Below are positions 6,319-24,552 of a DNA stretch of 37,638 nt, one piece after another. The notes beneath the pieces are model-generated. The model saw nothing but the letters and a program-made list of their open reading frames with translations. It made no database searches and was not told the DNA's origin. Origin of the DNA: Bdellovibrionales bacterium (GTDB taxonomy: Bacteria > Bdellovibrionota > Bdellovibrionia > Bdellovibrionales > UBA1609); contig JADZEO010000080.1 of assembly GCA_020850475.1 (NCBI GenBank), forward strand, positions 1-37,638, written 5' to 3'. Position numbers and translations under genes: made by a program. Numbering within the stretch: position 1 is the stretch's first letter; each line of letters starts with the position of its first letter.

Positions 6319-8458
<2,140 letters not shown>

Positions 8459-8462
<4 letters not shown>

Positions 8463-9157
8463 TGCGGATTGGGTATAGCGCCTCGGCTCTTGGCTGGCAA
8501 AGGTTCGTCGGGAATTTGATAAGAAAGTCCCGTGAGCAGAGCAAAACCTTGATAATAGGTTCGCCCGGCCCCGTCGGAAGCATCACTTTGACTCTGAAGA
8601 TAATTGAGTTCGAGATTCCAGTCCCATTCGCCGGTCAAATTGAAGCGACCGCCGACTCCAAGATTGAAAAACCAATCGGCACGCGTGGTTTTGTCCGTGA
8701 CGTCTTCGGTGGCCGATCGCCCAAGGGCCATGATCTCGAGTTCGGAACGGAGCAAGTAAGCGCCGAAAACCCCACCCTTAATAAACAGACTAGAAAAGGG
8801 TTCGCTGGAAAAAACCAATTTGCCGACGAGCGGGATCAACAAGAAGTCAGATCGCGCTTCATAGGTGTAGGGCAGAATTCCAATCTTGCCGGTTCCGCCT
8901 GAGCCCGCTTGCAAATAGCCGATTCCCGTCTCGAACCGCCACCTCCCGCGCCCCAGGTCCACACTCAAACCGCCGATCAGGCGTTGATCCAACCTTCCCG
9001 TCGAGGTCCCCAATTCTCCCTTGAGTTCAAAAAGGGCGAGGCCTCCGTAAGGAGTGACGGCAACTGAGGAAACCGGGCCACTGGCCCCCCAACTGACCGG
9101 TCTTGCCAGCAGAGCGAGAATCGCCAGAAGCAGGAAGTGAGCGCGAGAAATTCGCAT
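8459..9157 (-). CDS. predicted outer-membrane beta-barrel protein
   Basis: The 232-residue product begins with an N-terminal export signal (MRISRAHFLLLAILALLARP, with a likely cut after VSWGA). The rest alternates polar and hydrophobic residues with many Gly and aromatic residues, for example RWRFETGIGYLQAGSGG, FSSLFIKGGVFGAYLL and WDWNLELNYLQSQSD, as expected of an eight- to ten-stranded barrel of the general outer-membrane beta-barrel type. It does not end in an aromatic residue, and a Pro-rich tail follows the last strand. It is translationally coupled to queA by a 4-bp overlap. It is odd to see a barrel gene leading a tRNA-modification and Sec operon. The ligand or role is unknown. Confidence 0.7.
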
Positions 9158-9229
9158 ATCAAATAGGATAAGAGGTTTACCCTGAACAAAGTAGAAAATC
9201 GCGGTGGTATCTCTCTAAAGGGCCGGAAA

Positions 9230-9255
9230 ATTAAAAAGCCGGGCTCTCGCCCGGC
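9230..9255 (-). terminator. Rho-independent terminator of the 50-residue membrane protein gene
   Basis: Read on the minus strand, GCCGGGC, loop GAGA and GCCCGGC form a perfect 7-bp GC-rich stem, followed directly by TTTTTAATTTT. It sits 58 bp behind the small gene and 73 bp ahead of the barrel-queA operon, so it separates the two transcription units. Confidence 0.9.
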
Positions 9256-9313
9256 GGCTCGCATGGGGAACGCAGTAATGGGGTAGTTGCACCATGCAAA
9301 TCAGAAATTCAAT

Positions 9314-9466
9314 TTACAGCCGACCAAAGTCGTCGGACTCGGGATCCTTTTTGTAACTCTGCCACCGCACCCGGGCCGCCTTAGGCCCGGCCATAAGGAG
9401 AAAGGTCGAGACCACCGTCACCGCATACAAAACACAGAACAGGGTGATTAAAACGGAATCGCTCAT
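9314..9466 (-). CDS. 50-residue single-pass membrane protein, unknown function
   Basis: This short gene encodes 50 residues, starting MSDSVLITLFCVLYAVTVVS and ending ESDDFGRL. Residues 4-28 form one hydrophobic membrane helix, followed by a basic stretch (PKAARVRWQSYKK) and an acidic tail. By the positive-inside rule the C-terminus should be cytoplasmic. AGGA lies six bases before the ATG, and a strong terminator follows at 9230-9255, so it looks like a self-contained small unit. I do not recognise a family. An overlapping ATG four bases upstream in another frame gives only a short frame and is less likely. Confidence 0.65.
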   Translation of the reverse strand: MSDSVLITLFCVLYAVTVVSTFLLMAGPKAARVRWQSYKKDPESDDFGRL

Positions 9467-9517
9467 TCATTGTCCTTTCCTTGAGTCACCAAGGGCCCAT
9501 CCTTGGGCCAGGGCCAC

Positions 9518-9537
9518 AGGAAGCGTCCATGCTTCCT
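9518..9537. repeat. small inverted repeat
   Basis: AGGAAGC, six-base spacer GTCCAT, then GCTTCCT form a perfect 7-bp stem upstream of the small membrane-protein gene. It has no clear T-tract on either strand. It may be a regulatory hairpin or protein site in the leader of that gene. Confidence 0.4.
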
Positions 9538-9592
9538 GATTTTAGCGCCGCATCCATGCAGCTCTCATAAGCAACGACAACGAGGGTGCGCG

Positions 9593-9611
9593 GTTGGGTT
9601 AATGGCCCAAC
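9593..9611 (-). repeat. hairpin behind the 299-residue secreted protein gene
   Basis: GTTGGG and CCCAAC pair across a 7-base loop 35 bp after the stop of the minus-strand gene at 9646. No T-tract follows on the minus strand, so it is at best a weak terminator or an mRNA 3'-end stabiliser. Confidence 0.35.
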
Positions 9612-9645
9612 GCAAATCGAGTTCAACTATATGATATTGTGGGAG

Positions 9646-10545
9646 TTACTCGGAGTATCCCATATAAAAGCCCCAGGCCTGATGGTGCTCATCAATGACC
9701 ACGAGCACATTGCGACTCCAGGGAAAGGGGTGCTCTTCGCCGCCATTAAAATAGAAGCGCTTAAGTATTCCCTGCCCTTTGAGAGCCTGAGCCAAGGGGG
9801 CAAAGGCCGGGTCTCCCTCGGGTCCCTCATGGGCTTGCCAGAAATCATCGATGGCCTTGAGTCCCGCCGTCACAAAACCAACTTTTTCCAGTTCAAATGC
9901 TTTGCGAAGTTGGCCGAACAATTCATCCGACTCAAGGACCGCGGGATCAAGCTGTACGGGATTGAAAAAACCCCGATCCAAGGTGGTCGACTCGCGAACC
10001 TTGCTCCAGATGGAGCGCAAAAACGCGTACGTCAAATGGCCCGGCTCCCGGAAGTTCTCTTCGGCCTTGCGATCTTGGGCCGCTTCCACGGCTCCAAAGT
10101 AAAGCAGCTTGTAGTTGGAGTTGGCTTTGAAAAAGCCCTCACTATCGACGTTGCTGCCTAAGTCCAGCAGGGCCTGTTCCTTAAACCATCGAATCATAGT
10201 GGCCAGGCGAGCCGAGTCCTTGCCCTTGCGATCGAGAATCGTTTTAACAATTTCATTGAGGTCAAGAGCATCGCGACAGACCGGAGTGCGAGGTTGCGAA
10301 GGCGTGGGCTCTGAGTTGGTAAAAACCGTATCCCTGCCGACGACCTTACGGCCCTTTTTGTTGTTGTCCTTTTCCCAGCGAGAGAGGCAGTCCACCAAGG
10401 ATTTTCGCTTGAGCTCCTGAAATGACTGCGCCACTTCATCAACGGAAACGCGCGACAGCTCGCGAGGGGGTTCAAAGGCTTGAGCGACAGGCGCGGAAAC
10501 CACGCCGCCCGCCAGCAAACCAAGGACTAGTATGAAGTTCGCCAT
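9646..10545 (-). CDS. secreted protein of unknown function
   Basis: The 299-residue product starts with a short hydrophobic export signal (MANFILVLGLLAGGVVSAP, likely cut after VAQA). I recognise no family. The mature part is mixed charged and helical in its first two thirds, with two cysteines (in LVDCLSRW and TPVCRDAL) that could form a disulfide in the periplasm. It ends in a strand-rich segment with FYFNGGEEHPFPWSRNVLVV and WGFYMGYSE. No membrane segment other than the signal is visible. It stands alone: the next minus-strand gene is far upstream and a hairpin follows it. Periplasmic location is inferred from the signal only. Confidence 0.65.
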   Translation of the reverse strand: MANFILVLGLLAGGVVSAPVAQAFEPPRELSRVSVDEVAQSFQELKRKSLVDCLSRWEKDNNKKGRKVVGRDTVFTNSEPTPSQPRTPVCRDALDLNEIVKTILDRKGKDSARLATMIRWFKEQALLDLGSNVDSEGFFKANSNYKLLYFGAVEAAQDRKAEENFREPGHLTYAFLRSIWSKVRESTTLDRGFFNPVQLDPAVLESDELFGQLRKAFELEKVGFVTAGLKAIDDFWQAHEGPEGDPAFAPLAQALKGQGILKRFYFNGGEEHPFPWSRNVLVVIDEHHQAWGFYMGYSE

Positions 10546-12882: not shown

Positions 12883-13056
12883 GGAGTGGCAATACTTTAT
12901 TGCAATCTCGCTTGGTCAATTTCCCACCCCGGATGAGCGCGGCATTTTGTCAGGAAATGGTCAGAAGAATCCGCCACGCCTTGGAAAGCGGAAGGCCATC
13001 GACTACATCAAATGAATGAGTCAACTCACTCAAACCGCCAAACCAAGGGCGTCCAC

Positions 13057-13476
13057 TTGAATATTTTGTTTATGTGCGTAGCCAACTCGGCACGTAGTCA
13101 AATCGCTGAGGGACTGGCGCGAGCCATGCTGCCTTCGGAAACGCAAATTCAAAGCGCAGGGTCCAAACCAGGAACCCTCAACCCCTTTGCGGTCAGGGTG
13201 ATGAAGGAAATTGGTGTCGACATTTCAAAACACCGATCCAAAGCATTCTCCGATCTGCCAAATGAGTTTCGCAATCACCTTGATTACATCATTACCCTAT
13301 GCGCCGACGAAGTTTGCCCGATCGTGCCTTCGGGTGCCCAAAAACTTCATTGGCCCCTTCCCGACCCCGCAACCAAAGAGTCCGTGTCGGATGAAGAGTC
13401 GCTGCGACGTTTTCGCGATACTCGCGAGGCGCTAAAGGCCAAGCTCGCTCAATTTAAACTTGAGCTCCAACAATGA
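13057..13476 (+). CDS. arsC: arsenate reductase, low-molecular-weight phosphatase type
   Basis: ArsC reduces arsenate to arsenite in the cytoplasm. The product has the P-loop CVANSARS (C-x5-R) right at the N-terminus, a second and third redox cysteine in TLCADEVCP, and the catalytic Asp in LPDPA, matching the thioredoxin-coupled family related to low-molecular-weight tyrosine phosphatases. I chose TTG at 13057 because AAGGG lies seven bases upstream and it gives the usual length (139 residues) and usual N-terminus (NILFMCVANSARS). An ATG at 13012 would add 15 residues but has no ribosome site. The stop overlaps the aquaporin gene by four bases. No arsR regulator is in the window. Confidence 0.88.
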   Translation: MNILFMCVANSARSQIAEGLARAMLPSETQIQSAGSKPGTLNPFAVRVMKEIGVDISKHRSKAFSDLPNEFRNHLDYIITLCADEVCPIVPSGAQKLHWPLPDPATKESVSDEESLRRFRDTREALKAKLAQFKLELQQ

Positions 13477-14117
13477 ACCCCAAGTATCTCGCGGAGTTTT
13501 TGGGTTCTGCCGGTTTATTACTAGTGGTCGTGGGCTCCGGGATCATGGCTGAAGACCTGGCGCAAGGCAACCAAGCCATCGCCCTCTTAGGCAATTCACT
13601 CGCGACGGGGGCTGGACTTTTCGCTCTAATCCAAACTTTCGGTCCCGTCTCCGGCGCCCATTTTAATCCAGCCGTGAGTTTGGTTGAGACTCTTGAAAGG
13701 CGCCTCTCCTGGAGAGAGTTGAGGAGCTACTTAGCCATGCAAGTCCTGGGTGCCCTTGTTGGCGTTTTACTTGCGCATTTTATCTTTGCAAAAAAGTTGT
13801 TTCAACTTTCAACTCATGCACGACAGAGTGGGCCTCTGTTGGTTTCGGAATTGGTGGTTTCCTTTGGACTGCTGATGGTGATCGGTCTCGTGAGTCGGCG
13901 AAATCCTGCCGCGACTTCCGCGTCTGTCGCACTCTACATTACGGCCGGTTACTGGTGTACGTCTTCAACCTCATTTGCCAACCCAGCGGTGACTCTCGCG
14001 CGCAGTCTGACTGACACCTTTGCGGGAATCCTCTGGACGGGTGTGCCCGGTTTTGTCGTTGCACAACTGATTGGAGCTTACCTCGCCCATCGTGTGTTGA
14101 GGTTGCTTACTTCCTAA
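13473..14117 (+). CDS. aqpS: aquaporin-type channel, probably arsenite efflux
   Basis: The 214-residue product is a MIP-family channel with six hydrophobic helices and both pore loops: SGAHFNPAVS (loop B) and TSFANPAVT (loop E), each with the NPA signature. It is a four-base overlap (ATGA) behind arsC, so the two are translated together. In Sinorhizobium an aquaglyceroporin (AqpS) paired with ArsC lets arsenite leave the cell down its gradient; the same division of labour is inferred here. Substrate selectivity cannot be proven from the sequence; a water or glycerol channel is the alternative. The gene symbol is by analogy of context. Confidence 0.8.
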   Translation: MNPKYLAEFLGSAGLLLVVVGSGIMAEDLAQGNQAIALLGNSLATGAGLFALIQTFGPVSGAHFNPAVSLVETLERRLSWRELRSYLAMQVLGALVGVLLAHFIFAKKLFQLSTHARQSGPLLVSELVVSFGLLMVIGLVSRRNPAATSASVALYITAGYWCTSSTSFANPAVTLARSLTDTFAGILWTGVPGFVVAQLIGAYLAHRVLRLLTS

Positions 14118-18374: not shown

Positions 18375-19181
18375 ATGGAACTGTGGTTAGAATTTACCCT
18401 GTTTCTAGGAGCTATGATGTTTTCAGCTCTCGGGACAATCGCCGGGTTCGGGGGCGGTATTTTTCTGATTCCGCTGATGGTGATCGGTTTTAGCGTACCG
18501 GTTGAAATTGCGATCGGTGTGACGGCACTCTCTTTGTTTCCCTCTAGTCTTTATTCGTCAGTTCTTAACTACCGCCAAAAGCTCATTGACCTGCCACTCC
18601 TAGTGGCCCTCGAGGTACCCACCATTTTTGGCGCCTATGGTGGCGCTCACTTGACTCGCTGGGTGCCCACTCGCCCGCTCGAGAGCGCCTTTGCTTGCTT
18701 TCTCTTTTTTCTCGCCTGGAAAACACTCCGCCCATCTGATGGTTCAAGCCCTCTCTTGCGGTGGGTGACTGCGCTCAACGAACAACGTCCCCAAGTGGTC
18801 AAGGGCAGTAACCCCGTGAGTCTCTGGTCCGCTATCTTTTTTGGTGGGTTCTCTGGAATTATTGCCGGACTCTTTGGCATCGGCGGTGGCATTTTAAAAA
18901 CCCCGATCATGATTCAGGTATTCAAGGTCCCGATCCGCAGAGCTACCGCCACGGCTTTGGGGATGATCGTCTTCACCAGTTTGATTTCTGGATCCACTCA
19001 CTATCAATTGGGCCACGTTTCAACCAGCTTGTTGGGGCCCTGTGCCGGTGGTTTTTTTACGGGCAGCATCGTCGGAAATTTTATTGGTCATCGAATCCAT
19101 GTCGATCACCTCAAGCGAATCATTGCTGCTTCGATTGGCCTTGCCGGCGTGGCAGTTCTTATCCACGCCGCATTTCTTTAA
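18375..19181 (+). CDS. TauE/SafE (TSUP) family permease
   Basis: The 268-residue product has eight or so hydrophobic segments in two related halves. Each half carries the Gly-rich family motif: GTIAGFGGGIFLIPLM near the N-terminus and GIIAGLFGIGGGILKTPIM in the second half. TSUP proteins export sulfite or other sulfur-containing anions or related organic anions; some occur in metal-resistance loci. AAGGA precedes the ATG. It lies 88 bp behind the His-rich protein on the same strand with no terminator seen between, so it may share the CsoR-controlled transcript. The stop overlaps that of the convergent gene in TTAA. Confidence 0.9.
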   Translation: MELWLEFTLFLGAMMFSALGTIAGFGGGIFLIPLMVIGFSVPVEIAIGVTALSLFPSSLYSSVLNYRQKLIDLPLLVALEVPTIFGAYGGAHLTRWVPTRPLESAFACFLFFLAWKTLRPSDGSSPLLRWVTALNEQRPQVVKGSNPVSLWSAIFFGGFSGIIAGLFGIGGGILKTPIMIQVFKVPIRRATATALGMIVFTSLISGSTHYQLGHVSTSLLGPCAGGFFTGSIVGNFIGHRIHVDHLKRIIAASIGLAGVAVLIHAAFL

Positions 19182-19777
19182 GGCGTTTGCTGCAACAGGG
19201 TCTCGAGGATTTGGTTCCAAGCGTTGACGTCGCTGACGATCGCCATCGCTTCTTGTGACCAAGCTGGGTAGTTGCTGATGTCATCTTGGTAACAGCGTGC
19301 CTCGGGCTGCTTTGTGTAGCGACTATAATTGGTCGCCCAGCAAGCCGCATTCTGCGCATCATAGAAAAAGGAAAAGAGCCCATTCCAGTCTTTGATCTTC
19401 CACCCAGCAAAGGATTCTTCACCGTAAAGCGGCAGATCGTCCGGAAAGATCTCAATCGCGATTTCTCGTAAGACCGTATCGCCCAAATCTTCTTCGTAGA
19501 AATAGATTGCGCCAAGCTCCGGCGAAATCACAGTGTAAGCACGCGCCGGATAACTCCCCACCGGGTAACAATAATGGCGAAAGACCGATAGGTGGTCATT
19601 TGAGTACAGACAACTTTGCAAACTGTCGTAGCCAAACACTAAAGCCTGATCTTGGCGAGGTAGAGATTGAGCTGCCATTTGCCGAATAACCTCTGCCACC
19701 GGAACGGCAGTGCGGGCTTGGGCCCCGATTACAAATGCGAAAAATCCCATCCATGCAGTCACCAGAAGTTTGGACAT
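19178..19777 (-). CDS. secreted protein of unknown function
   Basis: I recognise no family. The 199-residue product begins with an export signal (MSKLLVTAWMGFFAFVIGAQ, cut near AQA) and has four cysteines in the mature part (in LQSCLYS, RHYCYPV, AACWATN and EARCYQD), which could form two disulfides in the periplasm. It is rich in aromatic residues (for example SPELGAIYFYEEDLGD and WNGLFSFFYDAQ). It is convergent with the TSUP gene, with stop codons sharing TTAA. A GGGG-type ribosome site stands seven to eight bases before the ATG. Confidence 0.65.
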   Translation of the reverse strand: MSKLLVTAWMGFFAFVIGAQARTAVPVAEVIRQMAAQSLPRQDQALVFGYDSLQSCLYSNDHLSVFRHYCYPVGSYPARAYTVISPELGAIYFYEEDLGDTVLREIAIEIFPDDLPLYGEESFAGWKIKDWNGLFSFFYDAQNAACWATNYSRYTKQPEARCYQDDISNYPAWSQEAMAIVSDVNAWNQILETLLQQTP

Positions 19778-20011: not shown

Positions 20012-21160
20012 CTAGCGATTGGGGTAGCGATTAACGATTTCTCCCCAACGTGCAAACAAGTCATCGAGCGCCCAGCTGGGAAAGTATGACTCCTCTTGCC
20101 TACGCATAAGCTGGCGCGCTTGATAAACGTCGTGCAGCGCTAAGACCAGGGCTCGAGATAAGTGTGCGTTAACTGGGGCTTGGTCTATCGAAAAGTCACG
20201 GTGCCCCGGTACACCCAGCCCGTTGTCTATTAAGTTGGCGCGCACCAAAACTTCGCGGTCGCCGTCCCGGCGCATTTCGACCATCAGGTTTTTGATGGCC
20301 TCCTCATCAGGTTTTTTGGGAAAGCGATCGGAGTTGCCAAATAAGTAATCAAGCACCCGCACGACGACTTCCATCTCTTGCCACTCTCGGGTCCCTCGCC
20401 AATAGGCCACGCGGGTGGGATCTTGACGTCGCACCGCTTCGACCTCTAAGCCCATTGACCACTGCTGAAGCGAGCCCACTCCATAGGACTTACCTTCGTG
20501 AACCAGCACCGCTTCCAGAGTTTCTGGCACATGGATGGGCGCGTGACCACCGTGACGCCAATAGCTCTCCAAAATGCGGCCGTAGAATGACTGGGCTCGG
20601 ACCTCGCGCACGTGAAACAAAAATCGCAAAAATTCTTTGGGTTGAGTTTCAAAAAATCCGTCCCGCACGGGTGCTGATTGGGCGAGTGGCTTAAAGATCG
20701 ACTGGAACCGCTGCCCCTGATCGTCGGCTTGAATCACTTTTAATACACCATTGGTGCCGCCACCCAGACGCTCCACTCCCACGATTCGAGATCGGCGAAC
20801 TTGGCGCGCCCAACCTAAATGCGATTGACTGGTGGGCAACCAAACAAAAGACTCACCGTTAGGTGCCCAACTTTCGGTAATTGTGCGAATCCAGTTGTTA
20901 GCGTCAATGACTTCGCGTGAGCGAGGCACTTCGCGGCTCGAAGAAACCCCCACGCCCCGCGCGCGCTGCATGAAGGCCTCGACCCAGGCCTCACCCCGAT
21001 CAGACAACTGGGAAAACTCGATTCGACTCTTCCCGAGCAGCAGCTGAGTGACTTGATCTGGGCTAATGATGGAAAGGCGGCATTCCCCGGCCAGCCCCAA
21101 CGGGACCAGCCCCAATATGATTCCCACCAGCACTGCCCAACCCAGATAGTTCACCTTCAC
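20012..21160 (-). CDS. probable secreted protein kinase, Fam20/four-jointed/HipA-like fold
   Basis: From GTG 21160 the 382-residue product has an export signal (MKVNYLGWAVLVGIILGLVP, cut near LAG). Then come elements of an atypical kinase: a Gly-rich loop VERLGGGTNGVLKV (about residues 130-141), a candidate ATP-binding Lys in SIFKPL (K157), LDYLFGNSDRFPKKP with a catalytic-type Asp (D278), and NLIDNGLGVPG with a metal-binding-type Asp (D312). The order and the GNxDR...IDNG pair match Fam20C, four-jointed and HipA/PI4-kinase-like proteins. I chose 21160 because GAGGG lies seven bases upstream; GTG 21175 adds five residues. The substrate is unknown; the signal puts the activity outside the cytoplasm. 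Family identity is inference from motifs. Confidence 0.65.
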   Translation of the reverse strand: MKVNYLGWAVLVGIILGLVPLGLAGECRLSIISPDQVTQLLLGKSRIEFSQLSDRGEAWVEAFMQRARGVGVSSSREVPRSREVIDANNWIRTITESWAPNGESFVWLPTSQSHLGWARQVRRSRIVGVERLGGGTNGVLKVIQADDQGQRFQSIFKPLAQSAPVRDGFFETQPKEFLRFLFHVREVRAQSFYGRILESYWRHGGHAPIHVPETLEAVLVHEGKSYGVGSLQQWSMGLEVEAVRRQDPTRVAYWRGTREWQEMEVVVRVLDYLFGNSDRFPKKPDEEAIKNLMVEMRRDGDREVLVRANLIDNGLGVPGHRDFSIDQAPVNAHLSRALVLALHDVYQARQLMRRQEESYFPSWALDDLFARWGEIVNRYPNR

Positions 21161-21302
21161 CGTTACAACCCTCACCCGTCATTAAACCTTCCTTTGCCCG
21201 CGCTGCGCTCTAGGCTCAAGGACTGCGGGTGGAATGGCAAATTCTACGATCTATCGAACTCTCGAGACCCGATAAACTTGCAAGGCCTTACAACTCTTAC
21301 AT

Positions 21303-22005: not shown

Positions 22006-24552
22006 TTATTTTCGACGTGGAGTTACGACTTGCACATCGACGCGAACGACCCCTTCCAGTGAGACGTCTTCGCTAAACTTGAGCACACCTTTTTCAACCT
22101 GGTATAAGCTCTTGAGGACTTCGTGGGCTTCGCCATTGCCGTAGATCAACCGCACGCGCCAAACCCATTCGGTCTCAGGATCGATGTTGAGCTGATAGCT
22201 TCTACTGATCCAACGGGTGATGAGATCGAGCACGAAGGTCAAAGCCGTATCGTAGGAGTCCAAACAAACCGGGAATAGTTTCGAGTTTCCTTCCCCGAGC
22301 AAGGTGTGCAGACGAGTGTACGAATGTCCCGGCGGAATGTACACACTCTCCGGCACACAGTTTGGATCCCCCGGCGGCACAATAAACGAGGCGACAAAGA
22401 AGCGATCCGCAAACGACGAATGAAGTTTCTCAGCCACGGTCTGCACGGGATCATTCGAAGGTCCGACCATACTTGCTGATTCCCAATTTCCCGCCACGGC
22501 CTTGTACTGAGTAGAAGGCTGCAATCGATAACCGCCATCGTGTTTACAGCTCGAGGTATCGAGTTGATGCCCAGTCGCAGCACAGGCGGCTGACAAGTGA
22601 CTTATGTTGGCCGGTAAACACATGTTGCCGTTGTCAAACCGTTTGCCCGCGCACTTCGCCAAGGCGGGTAATTGAACACACTCATTTTCACATTTGCTCG
22701 GCAACATGAACAGCTCAGAGGTTCCCGAGTTGGACAAAAAGTGTTGCACAGCCTGATTCCATTGATCCGTGCTACAAGCCGTCTTACCTACACTGCAAGT
22801 CGCAGGCGAGGTCACTGGAAGCGAGGTTGTGCGAATCGAGTGTGAACAAGTGTAGTTGCACGTCTTAAGGTCGTTGACGTTACCACTTCCCAAGTTGTTG
22901 GCGGCCAACTGCTTCAGAGTGGCGTCGCCCATGCAATCGGTGGGACCAACCGAGCCGTTTTGATCGGCGCCGAGTCCGCTGCATTGATAGATCGTTCGAT
23001 CCGTCAAGGTGAACGTGTTGGTCGGGAAACTCTCCGAACACTTGACGTTACACTCGTAAATATTGCCAGGCGAAATGTAACTCGGCGATTTGGAATCGGC
23101 AAATTCCCGTTGCGAAGCATTGCAACTGGTATTGCAGTTCGCGGGCTTTGAGGGCAGATTCTCGGAGCGCAGAGTGTTGCCATCCGTTACACAACGATGT
23201 TGGCAATTCACTAAATTGGCCGCGCCGATCCCCGCCAATCCGGCGGCTGCGGTCGGCTCACCAGCCGTGCAAGCCCGATAGCCTTCGGTTTGACCGTTAT
23301 CAGCACAAGTGCCACCACCGTAATCAGCAATGGGTTTATTGGTCTGCGCACTCAACTGATTTTGACAGTGAAGCTTACATGAGCCGGGTACCAATCCATA
23401 CGGCCTCAAGTTGGCTGGAATCGAGGCTAACACCTCATCGCAGCTCACCGCTTTTCCGGCGATATTCTCGGCCGCACAATATCCCTCGTAAGGATTGCCA
23501 CTGTTATAATTATAGATGTGAGTCACCTGCTCGGCCTCAGGCAAGCTATCCACGAGGACATAGCGCTCATAGCTGACCCATTCTTTACGCTGCTTCACTT
23601 GGTAGTAGTAGTACTTGCGATAGCGATTCCACCGATACTCGACTTTCCAAGACTCCACCGGAGTTTTAGATTGGTAACTCACGGTTTCAGTCACCTTGCG
23701 GTAGCTGTAATTGAGTCGCTGTTCTTTGTTCGGTAGATAGCTCATTTCATAGGTATAAGTGCAGCCGACATCCCCTGGTTGGCAAGCAACCGCCGAGGGA
23801 TCGTTGAGCACCTTTTGCACTTCTTGAGTTTTTTCATCCAAACAGCCCAACGAATCAGTCGCATCATCCTCATTGGTAGCCAAAATAAAAGCCTGAAACG
23901 ACTGCGACGACTGATTGGCCTTGGCCGCCCGAAGAAGGGTGCAAAGGGTTTGCTCTTTGTCGTCACCCTTGACCCCAACACTTGAGATGCTCGAAACATA
24001 TTCATTGGTAAAGTCGGCAAATTCGGGATCAGTCATGCTCGACCAAAACGGCAGCGCATGTCCAGAGGTCGTGTGCGACTTGGAGATCGAGTAACGCTTT
24101 ACATTCCAATAGGAAGTTGATGGAGACAGCGTTCCGATTTGCGAAAGCGGAATTTCCAGGAAACCGTCGGGTCCGCGATAGCGAACCAAGTCGGCCAAAT
24201 CAACTGACGATTTGTCGCCCGTCAAACTCTGCGTCGTTGTATAAAGGGCCATGTCCCCTGAAAAGCCACGTAAGCGACTGGTCACGGACTGAAATGAAGA
24301 TGCCACTTCATCCTGAATCGGTTTCATTGAATTGGAGTTATCCAAAATTGTCGATACCGAGATCGATGGGCGATTTTCTTTTTCTTCGGGATTGAACGAG
24401 ATTCCCCTGAGTTCGCCGTCGACGCCGGCCTTTACCAGCTCGTCGGTGGAGTCAAAGCCCACGTCGGAACAGTTCTGGAAGGTTCCCATCATCAAGGTGA
24501 AAGAAACCGTTAATAAGAGTACGCCGCTAAGGTAGTAGTTACTTCTCTTCAT
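22006..24552 (-). CDS. large Cys-rich surface protein with vWA-like domain
   Basis: The 848-residue product has an N-terminal export signal ending TFQNCSD; C28 could be lipidated, but the residues before it are not a standard lipobox. A vWA-type fold follows, with the metal-site motif D71-x-S73-x-S75 in ILDNSNSM and a later AFILATNEDDATDSL strand. Residues 301-331 are packed with Tyr, Trp, Lys and Arg. Residues 390-670 carry about 25 cysteines, including six C-x3-C pairs (C392/396, 450/454, 473/477, 501/505, 565/569, 621/625), suggesting repeated disulfide modules. vWA proteins with an intact metal site often bind other proteins or matrix. The gene stands alone; no partner is evident. Confidence 0.7.
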   Translation of the reverse strand: MKRSNYYLSGVLLLTVSFTLMMGTFQNCSDVGFDSTDELVKAGVDGELRGISFNPEEKENRPSISVSTILDNSNSMKPIQDEVASSFQSVTSRLRGFSGDMALYTTTQSLTGDKSSVDLADLVRYRGPDGFLEIPLSQIGTLSPSTSYWNVKRYSISKSHTTSGHALPFWSSMTDPEFADFTNEYVSSISSVGVKGDDKEQTLCTLLRAAKANQSSQSFQAFILATNEDDATDSLGCLDEKTQEVQKVLNDPSAVACQPGDVGCTYTYEMSYLPNKEQRLNYSYRKVTETVSYQSKTPVESWKVEYRWNRYRKYYYYQVKQRKEWVSYERYVLVDSLPEAEQVTHIYNYNSGNPYEGYCAAENIAGKAVSCDEVLASIPANLRPYGLVPGSCKLHCQNQLSAQTNKPIADYGGGTCADNGQTEGYRACTAGEPTAAAGLAGIGAANLVNCQHRCVTDGNTLRSENLPSKPANCNTSCNASQREFADSKSPSYISPGNIYECNVKCSESFPTNTFTLTDRTIYQCSGLGADQNGSVGPTDCMGDATLKQLAANNLGSGNVNDLKTCNYTCSHSIRTTSLPVTSPATCSVGKTACSTDQWNQAVQHFLSNSGTSELFMLPSKCENECVQLPALAKCAGKRFDNGNMCLPANISHLSAACAATGHQLDTSSCKHDGGYRLQPSTQYKAVAGNWESASMVGPSNDPVQTVAEKLHSSFADRFFVASFIVPPGDPNCVPESVYIPPGHSYTRLHTLLGEGNSKLFPVCLDSYDTALTFVLDLITRWISRSYQLNIDPETEWVWRVRLIYGNGEAHEVLKSLYQVEKGVLKFSEDVSLEGVVRVDVQVVTPRRK

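What the first reader, a model, noticed from the sequence alone, without database searches (positions are those of the whole stretch)
20012..21160. Secreted atypical kinase of the Fam20/HipA-like fold
An export signal is followed by a Gly-rich loop, FKP Lys, GNSDR and IDNG in the order of Fam20, four-jointed and HipA kinases. A kinase working outside the cytoplasm of a possible predator could modify its own envelope or a prey's proteins or glycans. I know of no described system of this kind in such bacteria.
Basis: inference. Interest (0 to 1): 0.7.

Follow-up and report, generated by a model that had tools for sequence, protein, structure and literature searches.

The report
Exported PI4-kinase/Fam20-like bacterial kinase
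This gene encodes a kinase-fold enzyme that the bacterium appears to send out of its cytoplasm; it is a very divergent member of a little-noticed set of exported kinases found across this bacterial phylum, related to the animal lipid kinase PI4KII and the Golgi kinase Fam20, with an unknown target.

Summary
It has an N-terminal export signal and, in order, a Gly-rich loop, FKP lysine (K162), alphaC-like Glu (E191), GSLQ hinge, LDYLFGNSDR (D283), N296 and LIDNG (D317).

A 29%-identical protein in another family of the phylum (SZAS-2) keeps every one of these and is also exported. The two give no Pfam, NCBIfam or PDB hit over any cut-off in the kinase domain. Profile-profile comparison places them with 24 exported PI3/PI4-kinase-like proteins from the same phylum (probability 97%, E 4e-10, whole domain). 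PI4KII comes next, then Fam20 and actin-fragmin kinase, all above shuffles; HipA is at background. AlphaFold with that alignment gives a confident kinase fold (pLDDT 82, pTM 0.83); all 27 PDB matches at E<=0.001 are PI3K/PI4K/PIKK.

So "exported atypical kinase" is right, "Fam20" is a distant cousin and "HipA" is wrong. The wider finding: PI3/4K-like proteins occur in 47 of 291 genomes of this phylum, with export signals in 26 of 27 ORFs examined. Substrate, ATP source and any predatory role are untested.

The parts
20012..21175 (-). Coding sequence of the exported kinase, 387 aa from GTG 21175 (alternative GTG start at 21160)
21089..21175 (-). N-terminal export signal, MRVVTVKVNYLGWAVLVGIILGLVPLGLA; possible signal peptidase I site GLA|GE (or an uncleaved anchor)
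   Evidence: sequence; heuristic; the SZAS-2 homologue also has one
20744..20770 (-). Gly-rich loop RLGGGTNGV (residues 136-144), between the first two strands of the model
20690..20692 (-). K162 of FKP, predicted ATP-phosphate-binding lysine in strand 3
   Evidence: nearly invariant in 25 sequences; in strand E66-73 of the model
20603..20605 (-). E191, predicted alphaC glutamate pairing with K162
   Evidence: nearly invariant; in helix H97-117 of the model
20465..20476 (-). Hinge GSLQ (residues 234-237); PI4K2B has GSFQ, SZAS-2 has GSMQ
20324..20353 (-). Catalytic loop LDYLFGNSDR (275-284), catalytic D283
   Evidence: D276, D283, R284 invariant in 25 sequences
20288..20290 (-). N296, predicted metal-binding Asn
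   Evidence: invariant in 25 sequences
20219..20233 (-). LIDNG (315-319), D317 = DFG-Asp equivalent
   Evidence: D317 invariant; just after strand E217-225 of the model

Best explanation
The gene encodes a catalytically complete protein-kinase-fold enzyme of the PI3/PI4-kinase/Fam20 branch (closest named relative: PI4-kinase type II). It is carried through the inner membrane by a Sec-type signal and works outside the producer's cytoplasm. By homology ATP binds between the lobes (Gly-rich loop, K162-E191, D317 and N296 for metal) and D283 serves as catalytic base, moving phosphate to a protein, glycan or lipid. Because the periplasm and medium hold little ATP, I think the likeliest site of action is another cell (prey or host), or else the cell's own envelope when ATP is supplied. 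Shown by computation: the ORF, signal-like N-terminus, conserved catalytic set, class membership and fold. Inferred: export in fact, activity, substrate and place of action.
For: Conserved catalytic residues in an independent exported homologue and in 25 sequences. Profile-profile: exported PI3/4K-like class 69.1, E 3.8e-10, shuffled maximum 19.6 of 60; PI4K2 46.3 against 19.5 and AFK 30.4 against 20.4. An HMM of 24 class members that excluded this protein scores it E 0.0022 and SZAS-2 3e-4; the best of 1,395 decoys is 2.3. AlphaFold pLDDT 81.7, pTM 0.83. Foldseek: all 27 PDB matches at E<=0.001 are of the PI3K/PI4K/PIKK superfamily. Export: 26 of 27 class ORFs have a signal-like N-terminus against 34 of 73 neighbouring ORFs, Fisher p 2e-6.
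Against: The protein itself reaches no Pfam family. The good model used an alignment made mostly of class members, so the fold is not independent evidence; the two-sequence run gave pLDDT 36. TM-scores to PDB entries are modest (0.3-0.44). The export call uses a loose rule. No ATP source, substrate or partner gene is known, and the gene stands alone among unrelated genes.
Confidence: 0.7

Rival explanations
1. It is a true bacterial Fam20/four-jointed kinase, phosphorylating secreted proteins or glycans.
For: Same motif order and an export signal; Fam20 profile scores 34.5 against a shuffled maximum of 19.7. The exported class as a whole matches C. elegans FAM20 at 5.5e-17 and human FAM20C at 6.6e-14.
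Against: PI4K2 and the exported PI3/4K-like class score higher. Fam20 signatures GN-DRHHYE and HLDNGRGFG and the Cys-rich insert are absent. PF06702 gives no hit for this protein. No Fam20 entry is in the listed top 50 of the fold search.
Confidence: 0.12
2. It is a HipA-like toxin kinase.
For: GN-D in the catalytic loop; 6 of 25 class members touch Pfam HipA_2 at E<=0.1.
Against: HipA scores at background with this protein (17.1; 13 of 60 shuffles as high) and with the class HMM (E 7.3). No antitoxin gene beside it. Export does not fit a cytoplasmic toxin-antitoxin pair.
Confidence: 0.02
3. It has the kinase fold but does another chemistry (AMPylation, glutamylation) or is a pseudokinase scaffold.
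For: Kinase-fold proteins with other activities are known (PMC10870513). ATP is scarce outside the cytoplasm. The SZAS-2 homologue is fused to an NMNAT-like adenylyltransferase domain.
Against: All residues of a phosphotransferase are kept here and in the aligned set of 25.
Confidence: 0.15
4. The N-terminal segment is an uncleaved membrane anchor and the kinase stays tethered on the periplasmic face, modifying the producer's own envelope.
For: Long hydrophobic stretch with positive charges before it; weak cleavage site; one class member has a lipobox, as does an AFK-like protein of G341 (L049).
Against: SZAS-2 and most class members have ordinary-looking signal peptides. Local ATP is lacking.
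Confidence: 0.25

Closest known systems
Phosphatidylinositol 4-kinase type II (PI4K2A/B; PF00454; PDB 4HND, 4WTV, 9HHM)
   Same: Same order and spacing of FKP, GS(F/L)Q hinge, LDY..N.DR and IDNGL..P; hhalign probability 86-90%; in the fold-search list
   Different: Below the Pfam PF00454 cut-off; bacterial and exported; PI4KII's palmitoylated Cys-rich insert (known from the literature) has no counterpart; lipid substrate untested
Exported PI3/PI4-kinase-like proteins of this phylum (unnamed; found here)
   Same: Export signal plus the same domain over its full length, E 3.8e-10
   Different: This protein and SZAS-2 are an outlying pair: DRF instead of the usual DRH, IDNG instead of the usual IDHG, extra residues before N296
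Fam20A/B/C secretory-pathway kinases (PF06702)
   Same: Secretory location, FKP lysine, GN-DR and LDNG motifs
   Different: Lower profile score, no Fam20 signature residues or Cys-rich insert
Actin-fragmin kinase (PF09192, PDB 1CJA)
   Same: LDVIVNNSDRLP..NLDNIML block resembles LDYLFGNSDRFP..IKNLMV
   Different: Only the catalytic block aligns; IDNG replaced by IDSK
CotH spore-coat kinases (PF08757)
   Same: Bacterial atypical kinases distantly related to Fam20C (PMC7821199)
   Different: No PF08757 hit; not spore-associated

Membership tests
Exported PI3/4K-like class of this phylum | Homologous kinase domain over its whole length | tested here: met
   hhalign 69.1, E 3.8e-10, shuffled maximum 19.6; HMM E 0.0022, above all 1,395 decoys
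Exported PI3/4K-like class of this phylum | N-terminal export signal | tested here: met
   heuristic; SignalP not available
PI3/PI4 kinase (PF00454) | Score over the Pfam gathering cut-off | tested here: not met
   no hit for this protein
PI3/PI4 kinase (PF00454) | PI4KII hinge and catalytic motifs and fold | tested here: met
   (sub-threshold in the sequence search, significant in profile-profile)
PI3/PI4 kinase (PF00454) | Phosphorylates phosphoinositides | not testable with these tools
   needs an assay
Fam20 | PF06702 match; GN-DRHHYE and HLDNGRGFG; Cys-rich insert | tested here: not met
Fam20 | Distant profile similarity | tested here: met
   34.5 against 19.7 in shuffles
HipA | PF07804 match or profile similarity above background; adjacent antitoxin | tested here: not met
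   no HipB-like gene seen next to it
Actin-fragmin kinase (PF09192) | PF09192 match | tested here: not met
   no hit for this protein; SZAS-2 only E 0.31
Any active kinase of the PKL fold | Lys, Glu, catalytic Asp, Asn and DFG-type Asp all present | tested here: met
   activity itself not testable here

The most novel reading that the evidence does not exclude
This phylum (Bdellovibrionota-type bacteria) carries a diverse 'exported kinome' of PI4KII/Fam20-type kinases delivered into or onto prey or host cells, where the other cell's ATP powers phosphorylation of its lipids, glycans or proteins; this gene is one of its most divergent members.
Probability: 0.3. Interest if true: 0.85.

Novelty: new variant of a known kind. 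Interest (0 to 1): 0.6.

Why it matters
Phosphorylation outside the bacterial cytoplasm is hardly known in Gram-negative bacteria, because ATP is thought absent there. A recurrent set of exported, catalytically intact PI4KII/Fam20-like kinases in a phylum that includes predators makes a direct question testable: do such bacteria phosphorylate prey or envelope molecules? It also gives bacterial relatives lying between PI4-kinase type II and the animal secretory kinase Fam20, which bears on where Fam20 came from.

Tried and rejected
Single-sequence searches of Pfam, NCBIfam, PDB, plasmids, phages and viral contigs: nothing. The profile A1 hit designed beta-propellers and a designed TIM barrel in the PDB: repeat-driven chance matches, discarded. 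Sub-threshold phylum-wide hits with 317-328-aa ORFs were unrelated when read. The first AlphaFold run on two sequences failed and was not used. A comparison with only a 77-residue Fam20 fragment looked like background; with full Fam20 domains it rose above shuffles. In one search the line for the exported class came from a stale file and is invalid; it was redone. HipA was considered and rejected.

Full report
WHAT IS THERE. The ORF runs 20012-21175 on the minus strand, 387 aa from a GTG. The first 29 residues form a positively charged start, a long hydrophobic stretch and a GLA|GE site. Then follow a stretch without a match and, from about residue 120 to the end, a domain with the motif order of kinases: RLGGGTNGV, IFKP (K162), VRE..A (E191), VPET, GSLQ, LDYLFGNSDR (D283), N296, LIDNGLGVPGH (D317). 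Alone, the protein matches no Pfam, NCBIfam or PDB entry.

RELATIVES. In 369 genomes of the phylum there is one clear homologue, in the MAG named Bdellovibrionales bacterium SZAS-2. That protein is 846 aa: its own signal-like peptide, an NMNAT/NadD-like domain (NCBIfam NF005519 E 3.5e-8, below cut-off) and the same kinase domain. Ten bases downstream on the same strand lies a signal-bearing protein with a sub-cut-off calcineurin-phosphoesterase match (PF00149 E 0.002). No homologue at E <= 0.001 was found in the other genomes of the window's own class, so the gene is rare and patchy; its GC (0.558) is a little above its neighbours'.

FROM MOTIF TO FAMILY. A profile of the two against the PDB gave sub-threshold but in-register matches to PI4K2B (hinge, catalytic loop and IDNGL; E about 0.1) and actin-fragmin kinase. 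Profile-profile comparison against real PDB sequences printed gave: PI4K2 46.3 (shuffled maximum 19.5), AFK with two bacterial AFK-like proteins 30.4 (20.4), Fam20 34.5 (19.7) and E. coli HipA 17.1 (13 of 60 shuffles as high).

THE EXPORTED CLASS. That led to a search of 291 phylum genomes with PF00454: 47 had matches at E<=0.01, 32 over the Pfam cut-off; one of 14 control genomes had a match, none over the cut-off. Read as proteins, these are 263-1,464 aa and nearly all begin with a signal-like peptide: 26 of 27 distinct ORFs, against 34 of 73 other long ORFs in the same loci under the same loose rule (Fisher p 2e-6). Similar domains outside the phylum (two actinobacterial plasmids, one Myxococcus phage) have no signal-like start, so export seems particular to this set, though sampling outside is tiny. 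An HMM of 24 of these, without the window protein or SZAS-2, matches PI4K2A (4e-19), C. elegans FAM20 (5.5e-17), FAM20C (6.6e-14), SZAS-2 (3e-4) and the window protein (0.0022); the best of 1,395 decoys is 2.3 and HipA 7.3. Profile-profile, the window/SZAS-2 pair aligns to the class over the whole domain: probability 97%, E 3.8e-10, score 69.1 against 19.6 in shuffles. This is the main evidence for placing the gene.

STRUCTURE. With the 25-row alignment AlphaFold gives pLDDT 81.7 and pTM 0.83. Strands and helices follow the kinase order, with K162 in strand 3, E191 in the long helix, D283 after the next long helix, N296 at the start of the next strand and D317 just after the last one. Foldseek's 27 PDB matches at E<=0.001 are all of the PI3K/PI4K/PIKK superfamily, mostly VPS34, with PI3K delta, PI4KII beta and ATM-labelled entries. 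The alignment was built from the class, so this supports but does not independently prove the fold.

HOW IT MAY WORK. All residues for phosphotransfer are kept. Export puts it where ATP is scarce; Fam20 relies on ATP import into the Golgi (established knowledge). For a bacterium in a phylum with predators, action inside or on another cell is an attractive answer, but nothing here tests it, and the lifestyle of this genome is unknown to me. The SZAS-2 fusion and neighbour (nucleotidyl-transfer and phosphoesterase domains, both signal-bearing) hint at nucleotide or phosphate chemistry outside the cell.

NOVELTY. I found no paper describing exported PI3/4K-like kinases in Bdellovibrio or its phylum, in an open-access library only. 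CotH is a known bacterial kinase distantly related to Fam20C (PMC7821199), and Legionella effectors include families that cluster with Fam20/CotH (PMC9758233). Hence: a new variant of a known kind, with a wider pattern that deserves its own study.

Noticed in passing
L035:6270-8810 and 8821-9750 (SZAS-2): Exported fusion of an NMNAT/NadD-like domain (GTLDPYHEGH motif intact) with the kinase domain, followed 10 bp later by a signal-bearing calcineurin-like phosphoesterase.
   Followed up: partly
L049:7098-8255 and 8294-9880 (genome G341): Two tandem exported actin-fragmin-kinase-like proteins (one matches 1CJA at 3e-11); the second is a lipoprotein with about 19-residue tandem repeats (TPAPVIHATKDEEHISVVR) before the kinase.
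   Followed up: partly
L049:13530-14855: A signal-bearing P-loop (zeta-toxin-like) protein near the two exported kinases, another ATP-using enzyme apparently outside the cytoplasm.
   Followed up: no
L097, L098, L099, L100, L074: A conserved 735-769-aa exported protein with a C-terminal PI3/4K-like domain in several genomes of one genus of the same order; a good target for knock-out.
   Followed up: partly
window 13012-14117: Low-molecular-weight phosphatase/ArsC-like gene next to a MIP channel gene, resembling an arsenic-resistance pair (PF01451, PF00230).
   Followed up: no
window 22006-24552: 848-aa secreted or lipoprotein-like protein with a DNSNSM (VWA-like) motif and many Cys, no Pfam match, found in 10 of 29 genomes of the family, the window's own included.
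   Followed up: partly
window 19178-19777: 199-aa signal-bearing protein of unknown family, same strand, 235 bp downstream of the kinase gene.
   Followed up: no
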